A stretch of 33,512 nucleotides of DNA from Brunnivagina elsteri CCALA 953. GTDB lineage: Bacteria; Cyanobacteriota; Cyanobacteriia; Cyanobacteriales; Nostocaceae. Under the pieces are notes generated by a model that was given only the letters and a program-made list of their open reading frames with translations, was not told where the DNA came from and did no database searches. Shown in pieces: positions 9,891 to 15,938 of the stretch. The translations under genes were made by a program, and so were the position numbers. The DNA is taken from contig NZ_NTFS01000020.1 in assembly GCF_002289455.1 (NCBI RefSeq), positions 1 to 33,512 of the forward strand. The letters run 5' to 3'. Numbering within the stretch: the first letter of the stretch is position 1; each line of letters begins with the position of its first letter.

Positions 9891-10612
9891 ATTTGACGAT
9901 TCACAAATGGGTTATCAGGTTGCTGCAAAATCCACATCTGACAACCCGTAAATAGTCGTAGCAATGCCTCAATTGATAGATAAAGTCGCATAAATACCTC
10001 TCAGAGAATGCCAGTAGTCAGAATTTGAGAATGTAGAGACTTGATATATAACGTCTCTCTATATTGTGATGTTTATTGCGATCGCAGAAAACCAGTAGGG
10101 GTTAACGGTTGTTAACCCTGAAATATCTGGTTGTTATACTAAAAACTAAAAACGGGTTACAACTATACTTTTAGATTGCGTAAAAACCTTAAAGATGCAA
10201 CATAAGTCAGCATGACAAAAGTTCAGTTTTTACCCGTGGGCAGTATAACCCTGAAATATCTGGTTGTTAACCCTAAATATATGAAGAAAATTGCGAAGAT
10301 AGGGAAAACCTAAGCTTAATACTGGAGATTAAGCATTTAAAACTATTATTGATGAATAAAAATCTTGATGAAGCTTAGACTTCACATAGTAGCAGTTCTA
10401 GCCCAAGTAGAAGGCTAGAGTTTAGTTGTAGAGATAGCTGCTGAGTAAACATAATTATTAATTCCACTACTTAGAGAGTATCATATCTTGCGATCGCGAA
10501 ATTGGTCAAGTATTTATCCAGAAAAATCTTTTCGTAAACAATCTTAAAAACAGCTTAGGTACTCTCAGTCGTAAAATAATAGTAATGAATATAGTGCTGC
10601 GATCGTGAAGTT
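9891..10612. other. Intergenic region upstream of leuA and the three-gene cassette
   Basis: About 720 bp between divergent genes. It holds a degenerate GTCTCT/AGAGAC inverted repeat (10035-10058), a 23-bp direct repeat (10114-10136 and 10247-10269) and HIP1 octamers (about 10079 and 10491). No credible small gene was seen. A Shine-Dalgarno sequence before the ATG at 10613 is not obvious. Confidence 0.45.
10114..10269. repeat. 23-bp direct repeat pair
   Basis: AACCCTGAAATATCTGGTTG plus TTA occurs at 10114-10136 and exactly again at 10247-10269, 133 bp apart start to start. Both copies are partly palindromic with nearby GGTTGTTAACCC. They lie about 350-500 bp before the helical-protein gene. 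They could be regulator sites or a recombination scar. Confidence 0.6.
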
Positions 10613-12034
10613 ATGCCTTCTCAAATCTCGACAGAACCAGAAAAGTGGTGTGAAACCTACGAACTTGCTTCCCAACATGACAAATATTCCCTCTTGATGG
10701 AAGCACTTGAAGAACCACTTTCCCAGGAAATTATTGAAGAATGCGACTTAGGGATGTTGTTAGTTGAGTTAAAAGATGAATTTGACAGCAATAATTTAAT
10801 TACAGAATTTCTGTCGGTAATTGAAAAAATACAGCAGTTACAACCAGAACTTTATGCTCAAGAATTTACATACCTCGACGATTTACGAGTTGAGTATTAT
10901 TTATTTCGCAATCAACCAGAACTGATCGATAATTGTTTATCCCAGTTTAAAGCTAATCCTGTTAGTAATATCGACCAAATGATGCCATTAATCGATTATT
11001 TGCGATATTACGGAGTCACAGAAGCATTAGTCGATTTGTGCGAAATTAGTTACGAACCAGTTAAAAATTCCGATGACATAATACCGGGAACCGAAGTCAC
11101 TTTCATGGGAATTATTTTGCTGGATTTGGTAGAACAAGCTTATCAAAAGTTACAGCAAGGAGAAAATGTAGATTGGGAATCAATTGGAACTGTAGTCAAT
11201 CGATTTAATCCCGAAACTGGTCAAAAATGGCTTGTAGATATTCGTGATGATTTAACAACAGAAATTGAAATCGATCGGCAGTTTTTCACTGACTATAAGA
11301 AAAAGCAAAAACGCGAAAGAAATTTAGTTTCATTATCAACAAATTTCTTCAAATATATGGCAACTGAAAAGCAAATAAAATTTATCACTAGCCAAGCAAT
11401 TTGGGAATCAGTTTTAGAATTTTTGGGAGATAGGGAACGCTCCGAAAAGCAATTAGAACATCCAGATAGTTATTTTGCTTTTACAGAACAACAACTCGAT
11501 AAATATCTGGGCAGATTGCTTAACACCTTATTGTCTAATCGAAGAGCAGATTTAGTTGCTGTTGTTTGGGGAATCCCTTATGTATACGAATTCCTACGTC
11601 AAAAAGGAATTATTAGAGAAGCTGTATGTAAAGATGCGATCGCAGCAAGTAAAACCCTAAAAACAAAGGTGATTAGGTTGTTTGAGACACAACTATGGAA
11701 ATACGATTTTGTACATCGCTGGTTGCCTCCTCATAGTATTTCTGAAACCGAATTTGCCAATGAAGTAAGTCTCTTTGCAACCAGTATTGAAAAAGTTACT
11801 CTCCTTGCTACTGAACCTGGTGAAGGTGCATTAGAATCCTTCTATAATAATTTAGAAGGAAATTCACTTTTTAAAGACTTATTTACATCTCGTAAAATTG
11901 ACTTGGAAGAACAAGAGGTATTCGAGTCTTCAACACAAATTGATATACCCCAATCTCAACCAGCAAAAAAACGCAAATCTCCACTAATGCAAGCTGCTGA
12001 ACTCCCCGATAAAAAAAGTAAAAGGAAAAATTAG
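10613..12034 (+). CDS. Helical protein of unknown function, first gene of SNF2 cassette
   Basis: A 473-residue cytoplasmic protein with no family that I recognise. It is rich in Glu, Leu and Lys and should be almost entirely alpha-helical: several leucine-rich helical pairs at about 25-250, a basic linker KKKQKRERN near 228-236, a second helical block at about 240-410, and a charged tail ending KKRKSPLMQAAELPDKKSKRKN-like (very basic), which might contact nucleic acid or protein. There is no signal peptide, membrane helix, nuclease or NTP-binding motif. It is followed after 162 bp by an SNF2 helicase and then a coiled-coil protein on the same strand, suggesting a shared job. Base and codon use are AT-rich like its two partners. 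The cysteines are few and not arranged as a metal site. Confidence 0.75.
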   Translation: MPSQISTEPEKWCETYELASQHDKYSLLMEALEEPLSQEIIEECDLGMLLVELKDEFDSNNLITEFLSVIEKIQQLQPELYAQEFTYLDDLRVEYYLFRNQPELIDNCLSQFKANPVSNIDQMMPLIDYLRYYGVTEALVDLCEISYEPVKNSDDIIPGTEVTFMGIILLDLVEQAYQKLQQGENVDWESIGTVVNRFNPETGQKWLVDIRDDLTTEIEIDRQFFTDYKKKQKRERNLVSLSTNFFKYMATEKQIKFITSQAIWESVLEFLGDRERSEKQLEHPDSYFAFTEQQLDKYLGRLLNTLLSNRRADLVAVVWGIPYVYEFLRQKGIIREAVCKDAIAASKTLKTKVIRLFETQLWKYDFVHRWLPPHSISETEFANEVSLFATSIEKVTLLATEPGEGALESFYNNLEGNSLFKDLFTSRKIDLEEQEVFESSTQIDIPQSQPAKKRKSPLMQAAELPDKKSKRKN

Positions 12035-12080
12035 GTAATTTGGAATGGGAATTTTCTAACTGTCTGATTTTGCTTTTAAA

Positions 12081-12120
12081 CGCAGAGTATCGCAGAGGTT
12101 TACGCAGAGGTTCGCAGAGG
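12081..12120. repeat. GCAGAG short repeats in the cassette spacer
   Basis: Four copies of CGCAGAG at 10-12 bp spacing lie between the first two genes of the cassette. They are non-coding, of the short-tandem-repeat kind common in Nostocales. Confidence 0.6.
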
Positions 12121-12159
12121 AATATAGAGAATTTGCTTAGTTTTCAAGCATATTGTGAT

Positions 12160-12194
12160 ACTCCTTAACTTTTAACTCTTAACTCCTAATTTTC
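12160..12194. repeat. Heptamer repeats (STRR) directly before the SNF2 gene
   Basis: AACTTTT, AACTCTT, AACTCCT and AATTTTC follow each other in 7-bp register and end two bases before the ATG at 12197. They occupy the place of a ribosome binding site, and no Shine-Dalgarno sequence is present. Confidence 0.6.
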
Positions 12195-12196
12195 CA

Positions 12197-13906
12197 ATGA
12201 ATAATACCTACAATTTCACATTCCAAAATTCTCCAGCAATGACAGCCTTAAAACAGAGGCAACATGACGACATCAAATATTATAATGCTCGTAATGAGCT
12301 ATTCAAACTATCATTAATGGCAGACTATGACCAATTAGTTTGTTTACCTTCCCTCACTACAATCGACAAACACTGGTATCAAATAGAAACTGCAAGAAAG
12401 GTATTACGACAATTTGGTGGACGTGCATTACTAGCTGATGAAGTTGGATTAGGAAAAACAATAGAAGCAGGATTAATTGTTAGTGAATATCTGGCAAGAG
12501 GAATGATTCAATCAATATTAATACTAACTCCTGCTTCCTTAGTTTCCCAATGGCAATTAGAACTAGGGACAAAGTTTGGTATTTCTTCAATCACAACTGA
12601 TGACGACAGCAGACAGCAAAACCCAGAAGAATTTTGGACAGGAAATCCCCATATCATCGCGTCTTTAAATACAGCAAAATCAGCCAAACATTACCCTTTA
12701 GTGACATCACGTAACTGGGATTTAGTAGTTGTAGATGAAGCACATCATTTAAAAAATCGGAATACCTTAAATTGGAAATTAGTCAACTCTTTAAATAAAA
12801 GATTTATCTTAATGCTGACTGCAACACCAGTACAAAACTCCCTGGTAGAATTGTTTAATTTATTAACTTTATTAAAACCAGGTTTACTGAAAACAGAAGC
12901 AGATTTTAAACGCGAATATGTATCATCAAAAAATGGACGTATCCCCAAAAATCCAGAAAAACTCCGTAGTTTGATGCGGGAAGTAATGATACGAAATACC
13001 CGCTCTTTAGTTGATGTAAAATTACCAAAACGCTTTGCGACTACTATTACAGTTACTCCTAGTGAAAGCGAGAAAAAGTTATATTCTGATTTAAGCGAAT
13101 TTTTGAGAACCCACAGCGAACATCTAGATAAACTTTCTCGTACCAACTTGTTAATGCGATCTGGTTCTAGTCCAAATGCACTTGGGGAATCTTTAAAAAA
13201 TCTCTCCCAAAAATTAGATTTTGAAGAGTTGAAAACTTTAGCTAAACGTGCAAGTCAAATTAAACAAGTAGAAAAGTCTCGTACTTTAGTTGAATTGCTG
13301 AAAAAATCATCGCAAAAAACAATAGTATTTACTACCCATAAAGCTACATCAGCATATCTTGCTAAAGTTTTTAAAGAAAATAGCATCGAATTTGCAGAAT
13401 TTTTGGGAGATATGACTTTAAAACAAAAAGATGCGGCAATCGAAGCTTTTCGTGATAATCTCCCTGTATTACTTGCATCGGAAACTGGAGGAGAAGGACG
13501 AAATATTCAGTTTGCAAATGCGATTGTGAATTACGATTTACCTTGGAATCCGATGAAAATAGAACAACGTATTGGACGTATTCATCGCATTGGACAAACC
13601 CAAGATGTATTTATTTTTAATTTTTGTCTACAAGGCAGTATTGAAGAGTATATATTGCGAATATTACATGACAAAATTAATATGTTTGAGTTGGTTGTTG
13701 GTGAGATAGAAACTATTTTAGGCAATGTAAATGATGAGTTTGATTTTAGTGAGACAGTTATCGATATTTGGTTAAAGAATCAATCACACCAAGATATTAG
13801 TACTGCTTTTGAAAAATTAGCTGATGATTTACTTCAAGCTAAAGATAAATATCAAGAAACTCAAGAATTAGATGAGAAAATATTTGGTGAAGAGTTTGAA
13901 GCTTAA
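12197..13906 (+). CDS. SNF2-family DEAD/DEAH helicase-like ATPase (RapA/HepA-like)
   Basis: A 569-residue superfamily-2 translocase, only the two-lobe motor with short ends. Lobe 1: Q-type entry near 65, motif I DEVGLGKT at 81-88, motif Ia ILTPASLVSQW, motif II DEAH at 180-183 followed by His, motif III LMLTATPVQN. Lobe 2: IVFTTHKATSAYL (motif IV), LLASETGGEGRNIQ (V) and QRIGRIHRIGQ at 457-467 (VI). All ATPase residues are intact. SNF2 enzymes pump along double-stranded DNA and remodel bound proteins; RapA frees stalled RNA polymerase, and SNF2 proteins also serve in phage-defence systems such as DISARM. At 569 residues it is far shorter than RapA and lacks its extra domains, so its partners probably provide specificity. 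It sits between the helical protein and the coiled-coil protein on the same strand. Confidence 0.92.
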   Translation: MNNTYNFTFQNSPAMTALKQRQHDDIKYYNARNELFKLSLMADYDQLVCLPSLTTIDKHWYQIETARKVLRQFGGRALLADEVGLGKTIEAGLIVSEYLARGMIQSILILTPASLVSQWQLELGTKFGISSITTDDDSRQQNPEEFWTGNPHIIASLNTAKSAKHYPLVTSRNWDLVVVDEAHHLKNRNTLNWKLVNSLNKRFILMLTATPVQNSLVELFNLLTLLKPGLLKTEADFKREYVSSKNGRIPKNPEKLRSLMREVMIRNTRSLVDVKLPKRFATTITVTPSESEKKLYSDLSEFLRTHSEHLDKLSRTNLLMRSGSSPNALGESLKNLSQKLDFEELKTLAKRASQIKQVEKSRTLVELLKKSSQKTIVFTTHKATSAYLAKVFKENSIEFAEFLGDMTLKQKDAAIEAFRDNLPVLLASETGGEGRNIQFANAIVNYDLPWNPMKIEQRIGRIHRIGQTQDVFIFNFCLQGSIEEYILRILHDKINMFELVVGEIETILGNVNDEFDFSETVIDIWLKNQSHQDISTAFEKLADDLLQAKDKYQETQELDEKIFGEEFEA

Positions 13907-13908
13907 TC

Positions 13909-13988
13909 AGGAATTAGGAATCAGGAGTCAGTAATCACTAATCAGTAGGAATTAGGAATCAGAAATTAGGAATTAGTAACTACTAACC
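13909..13988. repeat. Heptamer repeats (STRR) before the third cassette gene
   Basis: About eleven degenerate 7-bp units (AGGAATT, AGGAATC, AGGAGTC, AGTAATC, ACTAATC and so on, with one 3-bp slip at 13944-13946) fill almost all of the 92-bp spacer, starting 3 nt after the helicase stop codon. No Shine-Dalgarno sequence precedes the ATG at 13999. Confidence 0.75.
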
Positions 13989-13998
13989 ATTAAAAAAC

Positions 13999-15042
13999 AT
14001 GCTTGCAACAAATGACCCAATCATTAATACTTTGGAAATCGTAATTTCCACCTATGATGGAATTGCGGAATTAATAGACGAGAAAACAATTAATGTACTT
14101 CTACCTGAAAAATTAGCAAAATCACTTCAATTAGAAGAAGAAACTACCTTTAGTACTGCTATTAATACCCCGAATAGCCAATTTATTAGCTATCATTCAG
14201 AACTCCTGAATCGATTTGCAGAAATTCTTACAGAAGTTGGTAACGTCACTACTTTAGGAATTAAATATGATGGTTATCTAAAAACTTCAGGATTTGAAAA
14301 ACAAATATCTCAAAAAATACAACCTCTGAATGGTTTAATTCGCTTTGTTGATGCTAAACCAGAAACCACTCGCTATATTTGGTGTAACGTTGCTTATACC
14401 GCAGAAGCTGATGAAAAACGAATTGGTATGGTATCATTTATTTTTAATGAATTTACATCTGTGTCGCCTGTAGACATAGGTGATGCGTTATTATGGGATG
14501 CCGATAAAATTCCCGTCGATGATACTTCCCTAGCTCAAAATATGAGCGATCGCGAACTATCTCACATCATTGAAGAGACATCTGCAAATCTGATTCAAAC
14601 AGATTTAGAAAATTGGCAGGCAAAATTACATCGTGCTTTAACTAGAGATGAAGAGAGATTAAAAAATTATTACGGAACTATCAGTACTGAGATTGCTGCC
14701 AAAATACAACACAAAGAATTAACAGTTGAACAGCAAGAAAAAGAACAAGCTAGAATTGAAGCCACAAACAGAGAGCTAGACAGGAAAATTGCCGATATTC
14801 GCGAAAGATACGCACTTTCTGCCTCAGCAAAATTACATAGTGCGATGGTATTACATCTGCCAACTGTACATATTAACTGTACTTTGCAAAGGAAAAAAAT
14901 TAAAAGAGATGTAACCCTAGTTTGGAACCCCTTCACAAAAATAATTGAACCTTTGCGCTGCGAAGTTTCAGGAGAACCCGTTTACGAATTTTATTTAGAT
15001 GACAAAGAAGCAAAAATAATTTCACCCTCTGCTTGGAAATAG
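13999..15042 (+). CDS. Coiled-coil protein with degenerate zinc ribbon, third gene of SNF2 cassette
   Basis: A 347-residue protein. The first 190 residues are a mixed alpha/beta domain without known motifs. Residues about 195-270 are a long charged coiled coil (repeated RDEERLKNYY, EQQEKEQARIEATNRELDRK). The end, about 275-347, has beta strands and the phrase WNPFTKIIEPLRCEVSGEPV. From memory, proteins beside SNF2 genes in other bacterial phyla end in a similar NPxTGxxEPPxCxxCG zinc ribbon. Here only the first Cys survives (CEVSG) and the second Cys pair is absent, so zinc binding is probably lost. It is the same strand as and 92 bp after the helicase. A role as the helicase's regulatory or DNA-recognition partner is inferred from the neighbourhood alone. 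Confidence 0.75.
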   Translation: MLATNDPIINTLEIVISTYDGIAELIDEKTINVLLPEKLAKSLQLEEETTFSTAINTPNSQFISYHSELLNRFAEILTEVGNVTTLGIKYDGYLKTSGFEKQISQKIQPLNGLIRFVDAKPETTRYIWCNVAYTAEADEKRIGMVSFIFNEFTSVSPVDIGDALLWDADKIPVDDTSLAQNMSDRELSHIIEETSANLIQTDLENWQAKLHRALTRDEERLKNYYGTISTEIAAKIQHKELTVEQQEKEQARIEATNRELDRKIADIRERYALSASAKLHSAMVLHLPTVHINCTLQRKKIKRDVTLVWNPFTKIIEPLRCEVSGEPVYEFYLDDKEAKIISPSAWK

Positions 15043-15647
15043 TTGTAAAAAGTTAACGGTTAACAGAAAAGGGGAAAATCTAAATTTAACTTTCTTCTTG
15101 GAATCGAATCATTATTTAAAGATTTCGTAATGTTTTTTGAGTCAAGTTTTACAACATAGTTATCGTAACTACTCAATCCTGTGATACTCTCTCACCTCAT
15201 CCAATGGGAGTTCCAGCTTCGCAACAAAAATTAACATTTCGGTTGCGATCGCAGAGGTGGTTTAGCGACACATCCCAGTGATAGCTATCAATGTAGCCAT
15301 CTACTCTGTTTTCTAGTTCCATATTTACAAAAAGAGATAGAACAGCCATATCGTCGGAGTTACAGTTTCCACATATCCAAGTTTAATTGGCTAAAACCTA
15401 GTTCTAGTAAGAACAAAGACAAATATTCTGAATCCCTACTGCCGTTGTTCCCCAAATGTGACAAAAACTTAAACATCCCTACTCATCCCCTCGGAGAAGC
15501 AGAAACTATGGCTAAAATGTAAAAATTAAATTGTTTTCTTTACACTTAATGGCTAAAATTGGGATTAGAGTTGGGTTTCTCGTGGAAATTTTGCGATCGC
15601 ACTAGGCATTTTTGTATCAAGTACGATAATATTGTTAGTCCTGAGTG

Positions 15648-15938
15648 TTAAATCCCTTTTGAATTGATTAGAATACCTTGTATACAATAGGAACAGTTTG
15701 TCAAGTCTCTCAAGGGTGACATTTTAGCAGCACGGTTGGGTGCGATTAAAATTAAATAAGCTAAAGTTGAATTAATCCGCCAAACGGTAGATTCAATCCA
15801 AGCCTTAATAATGTAGTTAAGGTTACTGGCTTCATCAAGTTGAGTCACTTGAACAAAATAAGACTCGTCCAACAAAAAATCAGTGCCTGTAGCATATTCA
15901 GCTAAATTGTACTCTTTCTCAGTGCGTGAAGCTGTCAT
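15648..15938 (-). CDS. Possible small protein or gene remnant
   Basis: A 96-codon frame with an ATG start. The residues are of mixed, protein-like composition (EYATGTDFLLDESYF, then a hydrophobic stretch LAYLILIAP at about 80% of its length), with no domain that I recognise. It is isolated in the gene-poor DNA before sigA and partly overlaps an opposing frame. It could be a real small gene, a decayed one, or chance. Confidence 0.25.
   Translation of the reverse strand: MTASRTEKEYNLAEYATGTDFLLDESYFVQVTQLDEASNLNYIIKAWIESTVWRINSTLAYLILIAPNRAAKMSPLRDLTNCSYCIQGILINSKGI

What the first reader, a model, noticed from the sequence alone, without database searches (positions are those of the whole stretch)
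10613..15042. Three-gene SNF2 helicase cassette of unknown function
A helical protein of unknown family (473 aa), a bare-motor SNF2 ATPase (569 aa, all motifs intact) and a coiled-coil protein (347 aa) lie on one strand with gaps of 162 and 92 bp and no other gene between. A stripped-down SNF2 motor with two private partners is the pattern of a dedicated remodelling machine. SNF2 proteins occur in the phage-defence system DISARM, and B. subtilis has a similarly sized SNF2 protein (YqhH) next to an uncharacterised partner (YqhG). None of the usual DISARM partners (methylase, PLD nuclease) is here. It could instead serve transcription recycling as RapA does. Defence is a hypothesis, not shown.
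Basis: partly seen in the sequence, partly recalled or inferred. Interest (0 to 1): 0.62.

Follow-up and report, generated by a model that had tools for sequence, protein, structure and literature searches.

The report
Mobile two-gene split SNF2 motor
Two of the three genes form a travelling pair in cyanobacteria, with a related pair on plasmids of salt-loving archaea, that looks like a known kind of DNA-motor protein cut into a motor half and a tail half; the third gene only happens to sit beside it, and what the pair does is not known.

Summary
The three ORFs are as described, but the conserved unit has two genes. P2 (SNF2 motor) and P3 travel together: 20 of 99 family genomes hold near-full P2 and all 20 hold P3; in 30 of 30 loci read with near-full P2, P3 lies downstream on the same strand. 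P1 is in 6 of 99 genomes and adjacent only in the window and one genus-mate, although the three form one 4.5-kb presence/absence unit against another genus-mate. The pair occurs on five cyanobacterial plasmids and one alphaproteobacterial plasmid; 15 of 16 haloarchaeal loci read hold a same-sized motor with a partner directly downstream. P2 ends where 34 single-chain DrmD-type proteins run on for 295-325 residues; the haloarchaeal partner matches that extension, and P3 matches the haloarchaeal partner moderately, not the extension directly. Best reading: a RapA/BrxHII/DrmD-type machine split in two. DISARM is not supported. Cyanobacterial neighbours are rich in plasmid and integrase genes, with no sign of defence islands; 7 of 16 haloarchaeal loci carry DUF499 or DUF1156 genes. 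Function is inferred.

The parts
12197..13906 (+). P2: bare SNF2-family motor, 569 aa; ends about 111 aa after motif VI, where single-chain DrmD-type relatives continue
13999..15042 (+). P3: partner, 347 aa; predicted strands, then antiparallel helix hairpin (184-237, 243-285), then strand (low-confidence model); proposed free-standing RapA/BrxHII/DrmD-type C-terminal module
13907..13998 (.). P2-P3 spacer filled with short repeats (AGGAATTAGGAATCAG type); in 17 of 30 loci the spacing is -17 to +13 nt, so the 92-bp gap looks derived
10613..12034 (+). P1: 473-aa protein, all-helical in a low-confidence model; neighbour, not a member of the conserved pair
10591..15112 (.). about 4.5-kb segment (P1+P2+P3) missing between leuA and rpoD in a genus-mate (G068): presence/absence unit in this lineage

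Best explanation
P2-P3 is a mobile two-gene operon encoding a split RapA/BrxHII/DrmD-type SNF2 machine. P2 is the ATP-driven double-stranded-DNA translocase; P3 supplies in trans the C-terminal module (an alpha/beta part carrying a long antiparallel coiled-coil hairpin) that single-chain relatives carry after the motor. The two would assemble on DNA, move along it and displace or inspect what is bound there. Because the pair occurs on plasmids, is patchy and often decays, and is of the motor type used by BREX-related and DISARM-type defences (beside DUF499/DUF1156 genes in some haloarchaea), its most likely use is in conflict between mobile elements or with phages. Shown: gene pair, co-inheritance, plasmid carriage, motor motifs, where P2 ends relative to single chains. 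Supported but not proven: P3 as the C-terminal module. Inferred: co-transcription, assembly, translocation, and the conflict role (about 0.45 on its own).
For: Pairing: 20 of 20 family genomes with near-full P2 have near-full P3; 30 of 30 loci same strand with P3 downstream, gap -17 to +13 nt in 17, 50-185 in 8, over 500 in 5; P2 and P3 distances correlate, r 0.91, 0 of 2000 permutations (shared host ancestry also contributes). Plasmids: 5 cyanobacterial and 1 alphaproteobacterial. Neighbours: integrases 7, ParA-type 7, ParB 6 among 140 of 199 ORFs from 26 loci; none of these is in the 25 most-hit families of 135 of 165 control ORFs, so at most 2 hits each there. Split: in a multiple alignment P2's last residue falls 110-111 aa after motif VI in all 34 single-chain proteins, with 295-325 aa remaining; local alignments reach P2's last residue in L163 and in 4 of 80 viral loci. 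Haloarchaeal partner profile versus that extension: hhalign 95.5%, P 1.4e-8, 258 columns, score 69.4 against at most 28.7 for 10 shuffles. P3 versus haloarchaeal partner: 75%, P 2.5e-5, colinear over 333 columns, score 46 against at most 19.4 for 20 shuffles and 22.5 reversed; the haloarchaeal HMM ranks 29 of 30 P3 above all but 2 of 1069 unrelated open frames. The motors of the two split groups lie together on one side of a branch (97/69). The P3 model's helix hairpin followed by a strand fits the BrxHII/RapA C-terminal domain described in PMC12839542 section 27 (read).
Against: P3 does not match the single-chain extension directly (0.7%) nor the C-termini of BrxHII-like L115 or RapA (0.6%, 0.3%). 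The single-chain DrmD-type extension itself does not match L115 or RapA C-termini, so placing all of them in one module rests on the haloarchaeal partner (69% with L115 over 83 columns, 1.9% with RapA) and on the paper. The reversed control of the strongest match is not clean: score 36.2 (28%), and 40.7 (52%) in the wider set of 37 against 70.3 observed. Cut into parts, the P3-haloarchaeal match falls to 0.4% for the N-part, 0.8% for the coil and 12% for the C-part. Only 8 of 30 P3 outrank the best decoy, a coiled-coil ORF, and the reciprocal searches separate badly: with the P3 HMM a chance ORF (18.8 bits) beats the best haloarchaeal partner (9.3) and reversed P3 reach 6.9; with the extension HMM the coil decoy (18.7) beats the haloarchaeal partners (11.5). 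The P3 model is poor (mean pLDDT 39). No defence enrichment was seen near cyanobacterial copies, and no nuclease or methylase was found conserved beside them.
Confidence: 0.5

Rival explanations
1. A RapA-like transcription-recycling helper: P2-P3 removes stalled RNA polymerase, perhaps on plasmid DNA, and has no defence role.
For: The solved structures closest to P2 by sequence are RapA (157 bits); the cyanobacterial pair sits beside plasmid genes rather than defence genes; P2 is nearly as constrained as rpoD (0.034 and 0.025).
Against: The RapA model match starts at model position 114 and P2 residue 17, leaving no room for the tandem Tudor part of RapA named in PMC12839542; RapA cut-off not reached (237.2 of 576 bits); 79 of 99 family genomes have no near-full copy, odd for a housekeeping factor.
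Confidence: 0.25
2. An orphan helicase arm of a BREX-related (DUF499/DUF1156) or DISARM-type defence, kept in cyanobacteria as an accessory that works with restriction systems elsewhere in the genome.
For: 7 of 16 haloarchaeal stretches read show annotated DUF499 or DUF1156 genes; the motor scores best with DrmD and then BrxHI/II, RapA and DpdE models; in L047 and L050 a 203-204 aa ORF of one 4-member cluster, by eye a PD-(D/E)XK-type nuclease, lies between P2 and P3.
Against: No DUF499 or DUF1156 protein among the 10 window proteins scanned, nor among the 25 most-hit families beside other copies (capped list); whether the host genomes carry such systems elsewhere was not searched.
Confidence: 0.2
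3. A three-gene cassette, with P1 as a lineage-specific third subunit.
For: P1, P2 and P3 together are the 4.5 kb missing in genus-mate G068 and stay together in Calothrix sp. CSU_2_0.
Against: P1 stands alone in G066, G018, G022 and G049 and is absent from 16 of the 20 genomes with near-full P2; P1 evolves faster (dN/dS 0.186).
Confidence: 0.07

Closest known systems
BrxHII helicase of Type-3 BREX and helicases of BREX-related (DUF499) systems (PMC12839542, sections 27 and 33 read)
   Same: SNF2 core; haloarchaeal versions of the pair sit beside DUF499 or DUF1156 genes in 7 of 16 loci; the described C-terminal domain has two long coiled-coil helices before the last strand, as predicted with low confidence for P3
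   Different: Single chain, in the paper with an N-terminal Tudor for BrxHII; here two genes and no Tudor, and no ATPase, methylase or PglZ found beside the window copy
DrmD-type SNF2 helicases (NCBIfam NF038318/NF038317, PADLOC PDLC02619)
   Same: Best-scoring family for P2 (262-267 bits); colinear with P2 to its last residue
   Different: Single open frames of 946-1117 aa in the 34 examined; P2 is far below the cut-offs; no DISARM partners
RapA (E. coli)
   Same: Closest solved relative of P2; has the same kind of C-terminal domain as BrxHII according to PMC12839542
   Different: Single chain with tandem Tudor; no direct profile match of P3 to its C-terminus (0.3%)
Haloarchaeal SNF2 + hypothetical protein pair (e.g. 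WP_006065900/WP_006065899; partner in phrog_36169)
   Same: Motor of like length, partner directly downstream, overlapping by 8 bp in most; partner moderately supported as a homologue of P3
   Different: Partner carries zinc-ribbon-like cysteines, in two cases long arrays of them (676 and 1095 aa)
B. subtilis YqhH/YqhG
   Same: Small SNF2 protein with an uncharacterised neighbour (recalled); B. thuringiensis YqhH has ATPase and helicase activity and aids UV survival (PMC10054049, abstract)
   Different: No PF11079 (YqhG) match in 10 genomes or records holding P3 or its relatives; YqhH not compared

Membership tests
SNF2 family of superfamily 2 | SNF2-rel_dom and Helicase_C with intact motor motifs | tested here: met
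DISARM (class 1) | DrmD at curated cut-off | tested here: not met
   266.5 of 950 and 240.9 of 610 bits
DISARM (class 1) | drmA, drmB, drmC and methylase beside it (features recalled) | tested here: not met
   10 window proteins between 901 and 21150 scanned against NCBIfam and PADLOC; the matches of the nine others name no such protein (tables capped at 25 rows)
RapA | RapA model at curated cut-off | tested here: not met
   237.2 of 576 bits
RapA | N-terminal Tudor pair | tested here: not met
   match starts at RapA model position 114 and P2 residue 17, so only 16 residues precede it
RapA | binding to RNA polymerase | not testable with these tools
   needs biochemistry
Type-3 BREX / BREX-related systems | DUF499/BrxC ATPase and N6-methylase in the locus | tested here: not met
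   none among the 10 window proteins scanned; for other cyanobacterial copies only a capped list was seen; present by annotation (either gene) in 7 of 16 haloarchaeal loci
[quoted passage not shown]
   predicted helices 184-237 and 243-285 then strand 290-298, but mean pLDDT 39; transitive profile link, direct link absent
YqhG (PF11079) | profile match | tested here: not met
   0 of 10 genomes or records at E<=10; B. subtilis among three controls that ring

The most novel reading that the evidence does not exclude
P2-P3 is a self-sufficient two-protein immune or anti-plasmid system in which splitting a RapA/BrxHII-type remodeller into motor and C-terminal sensor makes assembly itself the switch: the motor is engaged only when P3 recognises foreign or stalled DNA, with no nuclease or methylase needed. 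The same split machine would serve plasmids in bacteria and archaea.
Probability: 0.15. Interest if true: 0.75.

Novelty: new variant of a known kind. Interest (0 to 1): 0.48.

Why it matters
RapA, BrxHII and DrmD are large single proteins; the role of their C-terminal domain is, as far as I know, unsettled. A natural version in which that domain is a separate, co-inherited protein would let its job be tested directly by adding it or leaving it out. The pair's presence on plasmids of cyanobacteria, an alphaproteobacterium and (in related form) haloarchaea marks an uncharacterised module used in two domains of life, and the 'hypothetical protein' labels of P3 and its relatives could be replaced.

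Tried and rejected
Three-gene cassette: rejected as a conserved unit. DISARM: rejected. YqhG homology, which I suspected from a recalled pattern: no support by PF11079; YqhH was not compared, since I found no way to a Bacillota genome. P3 in viruses: none in 50,697 phage records at E<=0.1 and none in two scans of viral contigs; the haloarchaeal partner query found none in viral contigs although it matches a PHROG family. BrxHII-like (L115) and RapA queries in viral contigs found nothing; the L115 query in 386 cyanobacterial genomes rang nowhere at E<=1e-70, which by the tool's own note shows nothing. P3 profile against PDB sequences: best E 0.21. P3 model against PDB by VIA-align: 49 of the 50 rows shown cover only residues within 173-291, the helix hairpin (Z up to 10.1, in the range the tool gives for common helix arrangements); RapA was not listed, which excludes nothing. 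P1 model: all helical, pLDDT 41.6, not searched further. A weak P3 hit in G273 is a 57-residue stretch of an unrelated-looking ORF with membrane-like segments, taken as chance. An earlier count said 21 of 99 genomes with P2; the table gives 20 (loci L009-L028).

Rows dropped: 59 of 199 neighbouring ORFs and 30 of 165 control ORFs were left out of the family scans (9 and 8 of these because they have 1000 aa or more). PADLOC counts are families, not proteins; one control ORF resembling DpdE or DrmD may account for many of the 70. 302 viral stretches encode a relative of P2, the best 80 were kept; 43 of 80 gave a usable SNF2 frame; 37 sequences (33 viral, 4 cyanobacterial) passed the length filter and 34 formed the main cluster, all 34 aligned. 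The 30 loci are those with near-full P2; loci with broken P2 (L059-L063) were not in it, and L049 was left out as a duplicate of L107. 16 of the 18 haloarchaeal records were read (H29 and H34 were not). The tree uses 50 sequences; rows outside the length filter fell away, and RapA and seven others have long branches.
Full report
What is there. The window is one 33.5-kb contig of a 7.0-Mb genome; its neighbours are a 2-isopropylmalate synthase (leuA), a CRP-family regulator, rpoD and gyrA. The closest named relative met is Calothrix sp. CSU_2_0; genus-mate G019 has a contig of the same length holding the same genes and is taken to be that assembly. P2 is an intact SNF2 motor; P1 and P3 reach no curated cut-off. 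Against Calothrix sp. CSU_2_0 the dN/dS values are 0.186 (P1), 0.034 (P2), 0.068 (P3) and 0.025 (rpoD): P2 and P3 are real, strongly constrained genes.

Two genes, not three. In 99 genomes of the family, near-full P2 is in 20 and broken P2 in 5 more; P3 is in 26, near-full in 21, and every one of the 20 genomes with near-full P2 has it; P1 is in 6. Only the window and G019 have P1 beside the pair; in G066, G018, G022 and G049 P1 stands alone among unrelated genes. Over 30 loci read that hold near-full P2 (29 cyanobacterial, one alphaproteobacterial), P3 is always downstream of P2 on the same strand; the spacing is -17 to +13 nt in 17, 50-185 in 8 and more than 500 in 5, where other sequence has come between. 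Distances between loci agree for P2 and P3 (r 0.91; 0 of 2000 permutations), which is expected of a pair but also of any two genes with the same history.

Mobility. In a third member of the genus (G068) leuA and rpoD are neighbours in the same order and about 4.5 kb holding P1, P2 and P3 is missing; homology stops near window 10,590 and resumes at 15,113, with 33 bp between these points in G068. Gain or loss cannot be told from this alone; the scattered distribution favours gain. Elsewhere the pair lies on plasmids of Nostoc sp. UHCC 0302, Nostoc sp. C057, Calothrix brevissima NIES-22, Oscillatoria nigro-viridis PCC 7112 and Chondrocystis sp. NIES-4102, and on a plasmid of the alphaproteobacterium Rhodovastum atsumiense (P3 25% identical; SNF2 45.5% over P2 residues 84-569). 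Of 199 neighbouring ORFs from 26 loci 140 were scanned: integrases 7, ParA-type 7, ParB 6, Uma2 6, relaxases 2; the first four are not in the 25 most-hit families of 135 of 165 control ORFs, where the last family shown has 2 members, so each has at most 2 hits there. PADLOC shows no enrichment (29 families, none in more than 2 members, against 70 in the control), but these are family counts and one control ORF resembling DpdE or DrmD may inflate the control. The control regions were taken from long contigs of related genomes, so this says 'mobile context', not 'more than other plasmid genes'.

A wider family. P2 also finds haloarchaeal plasmids at 31-38% identity (18 records at E<=1e-30). Of 16 of these loci read, one (L115, Haloferax larsenii) is a single-chain BrxHII-like protein (519 bits) and 15 are bare motors; all 15 have an open frame directly downstream on the same strand that matches the haloarchaeal partner profile (14 of them were in the profile, the fifteenth, in L116, is unannotated and scores E 4.5e-85). 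The usual overlap is 8 bp. Seven of the 16 stretches carry genes annotated DUF499 or DUF1156; some others show restriction endonucleases. According to PMC12839542 (sections 27 and 33 read in full, other passages seen by search) an ATPase, a methylase and an SNF2 helicase are the three core parts of DUF499-centred, BREX-related defences, the methylase carrying DUF1156. That paper's main text holds none of the word starts split, haloarchae, DISARM, DrmD or cyanobacteri.

Why P3 may be the missing C-terminus. I collected single-chain relatives: 30 from viral contigs and 4 from cyanobacteria. In a multiple alignment P2's last residue falls 110-111 residues after motif VI in all 34, and the single chains continue for 295-325 residues, against 347 for P3; local alignments reach P2's last residue in L163 and 4 of 80 viral loci. 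The haloarchaeal partner profile matches that extension with probability 95.5% and P 1.4e-8 over 258 columns, score 69.4; 10 column shuffles score at most 28.7, but the reversed extension scores 36.2 (28%), and 40.7 (52%) in the wider set of 37 where the observed score is 70.3, so composition of the coiled coil carries part of it. P3 matches the haloarchaeal partner with 75% and P 2.5e-5, colinear from column 9 to 354. The haloarchaeal HMM places 29 of 30 P3 sequences above all but two of 1069 unrelated open frames and 8 of 30 above the best decoy; the best reversed P3 scores 3.0 bits; the Rhodovastum P3, cut short in this set, scores -1.3.

Against this. P3 does not match the single-chain extension (0.7%), L115 (0.6%) or RapA's C-terminus (0.3%) directly. 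The DrmD-type extension does not match L115 or RapA either; only the haloarchaeal partner touches both sides (69% with L115 over 83 columns, 1.9% with RapA). Cut into parts, the P3-haloarchaeal match is noise for the N-part and the coil and 12% for the C-part. Reciprocal HMM searches separate badly: the P3 HMM gives a chance ORF 18.8 bits and the best haloarchaeal partner 9.3, with reversed P3 up to 6.9; the extension HMM gives the coil decoy 18.7 and the best haloarchaeal partner 11.5. The motors of both split groups lie together on one side of a branch with support 97/69, which fits one origin of the split but does not prove it.

[quoted passage not shown] The P3 model, made from two near-identical sequences and poor overall (mean pLDDT 39), has its only confident part in a helix hairpin (184-237 and 243-285), followed by a low-confidence strand (290-298). 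That agrees with the description, but coiled-coil hairpins are common.

Function. The most likely biochemical role is an ATP-driven DNA translocase whose C-terminal module acts in trans. For the biological role the evidence is divided: relatives and haloarchaeal context point to defence; the cyanobacterial context points to plasmid life; the nearest solved protein is the RNA-polymerase recycler RapA. I put about 0.45 on a role in conflict with phages or other elements, 0.25 on a RapA-like role, the rest on repair or unknown.

Novelty. Paper-library searches (listings, only the first 15 to 30 of 46 to 203 papers) showed no title or abstract start that describes a split SNF2 pair of this kind; beyond listings I saw sections and passages of PMC12839542, the outline with abstract of PMC12458937 and PMC10054049, and passages of PMC7385302. 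Subscription papers are not held, so this is weak evidence of absence.

Noticed in passing
window 15648-15938 (-): 96-aa ORF between P3 and rpoD is kept at 60-63% identity in G068 and Calothrix sp. CSU_2_0, outside the mobile segment; a small real gene or a conserved region upstream of rpoD.
   Followed up: no
L047:8787-9398 and L050:7949-8563: A 203-204 aa protein (one cluster), by eye a PD-(D/E)XK or HsdR-N-like nuclease, lies on the opposite strand between P2 and P3 in two genomes; an annotated HsdR-N protein also lies near the broken P2 on a Nodularia plasmid (L117).
   Followed up: partly
L114:7569-10856 and L112:7813-9843: Haloarchaeal partners of 1095 and 676 aa carry long arrays of zinc-finger-like CxxC motifs after the shared part (by eye); most shorter partners end in a zinc-ribbon-like motif, while cyanobacterial P3 keeps at most a trace of it.
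   Followed up: no
L110:7601-8794: The haloarchaeal partner matches phrog_36169 (874 bits over its whole length, unknown function), so a near relative is among the proteins from viruses that PHROGs was built on.
   Followed up: no
L032, L031 (G018, G083): Decay products: in G018 the start of P2 is followed at once by the end of P3, as after an internal deletion; in G083 P2 is broken while P3 stays near full length.
   Followed up: partly
L160:6684-15997: A single-chain DrmD-type protein sits near a type III methylase and type III restriction enzyme in a cyanobacterium.
   Followed up: no
window 12080-12120: The P1-P2 spacer holds ACGCAGAG-type tandem repeats, and the P2-P3 spacer AGGAATTA-type repeats.
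   Followed up: no
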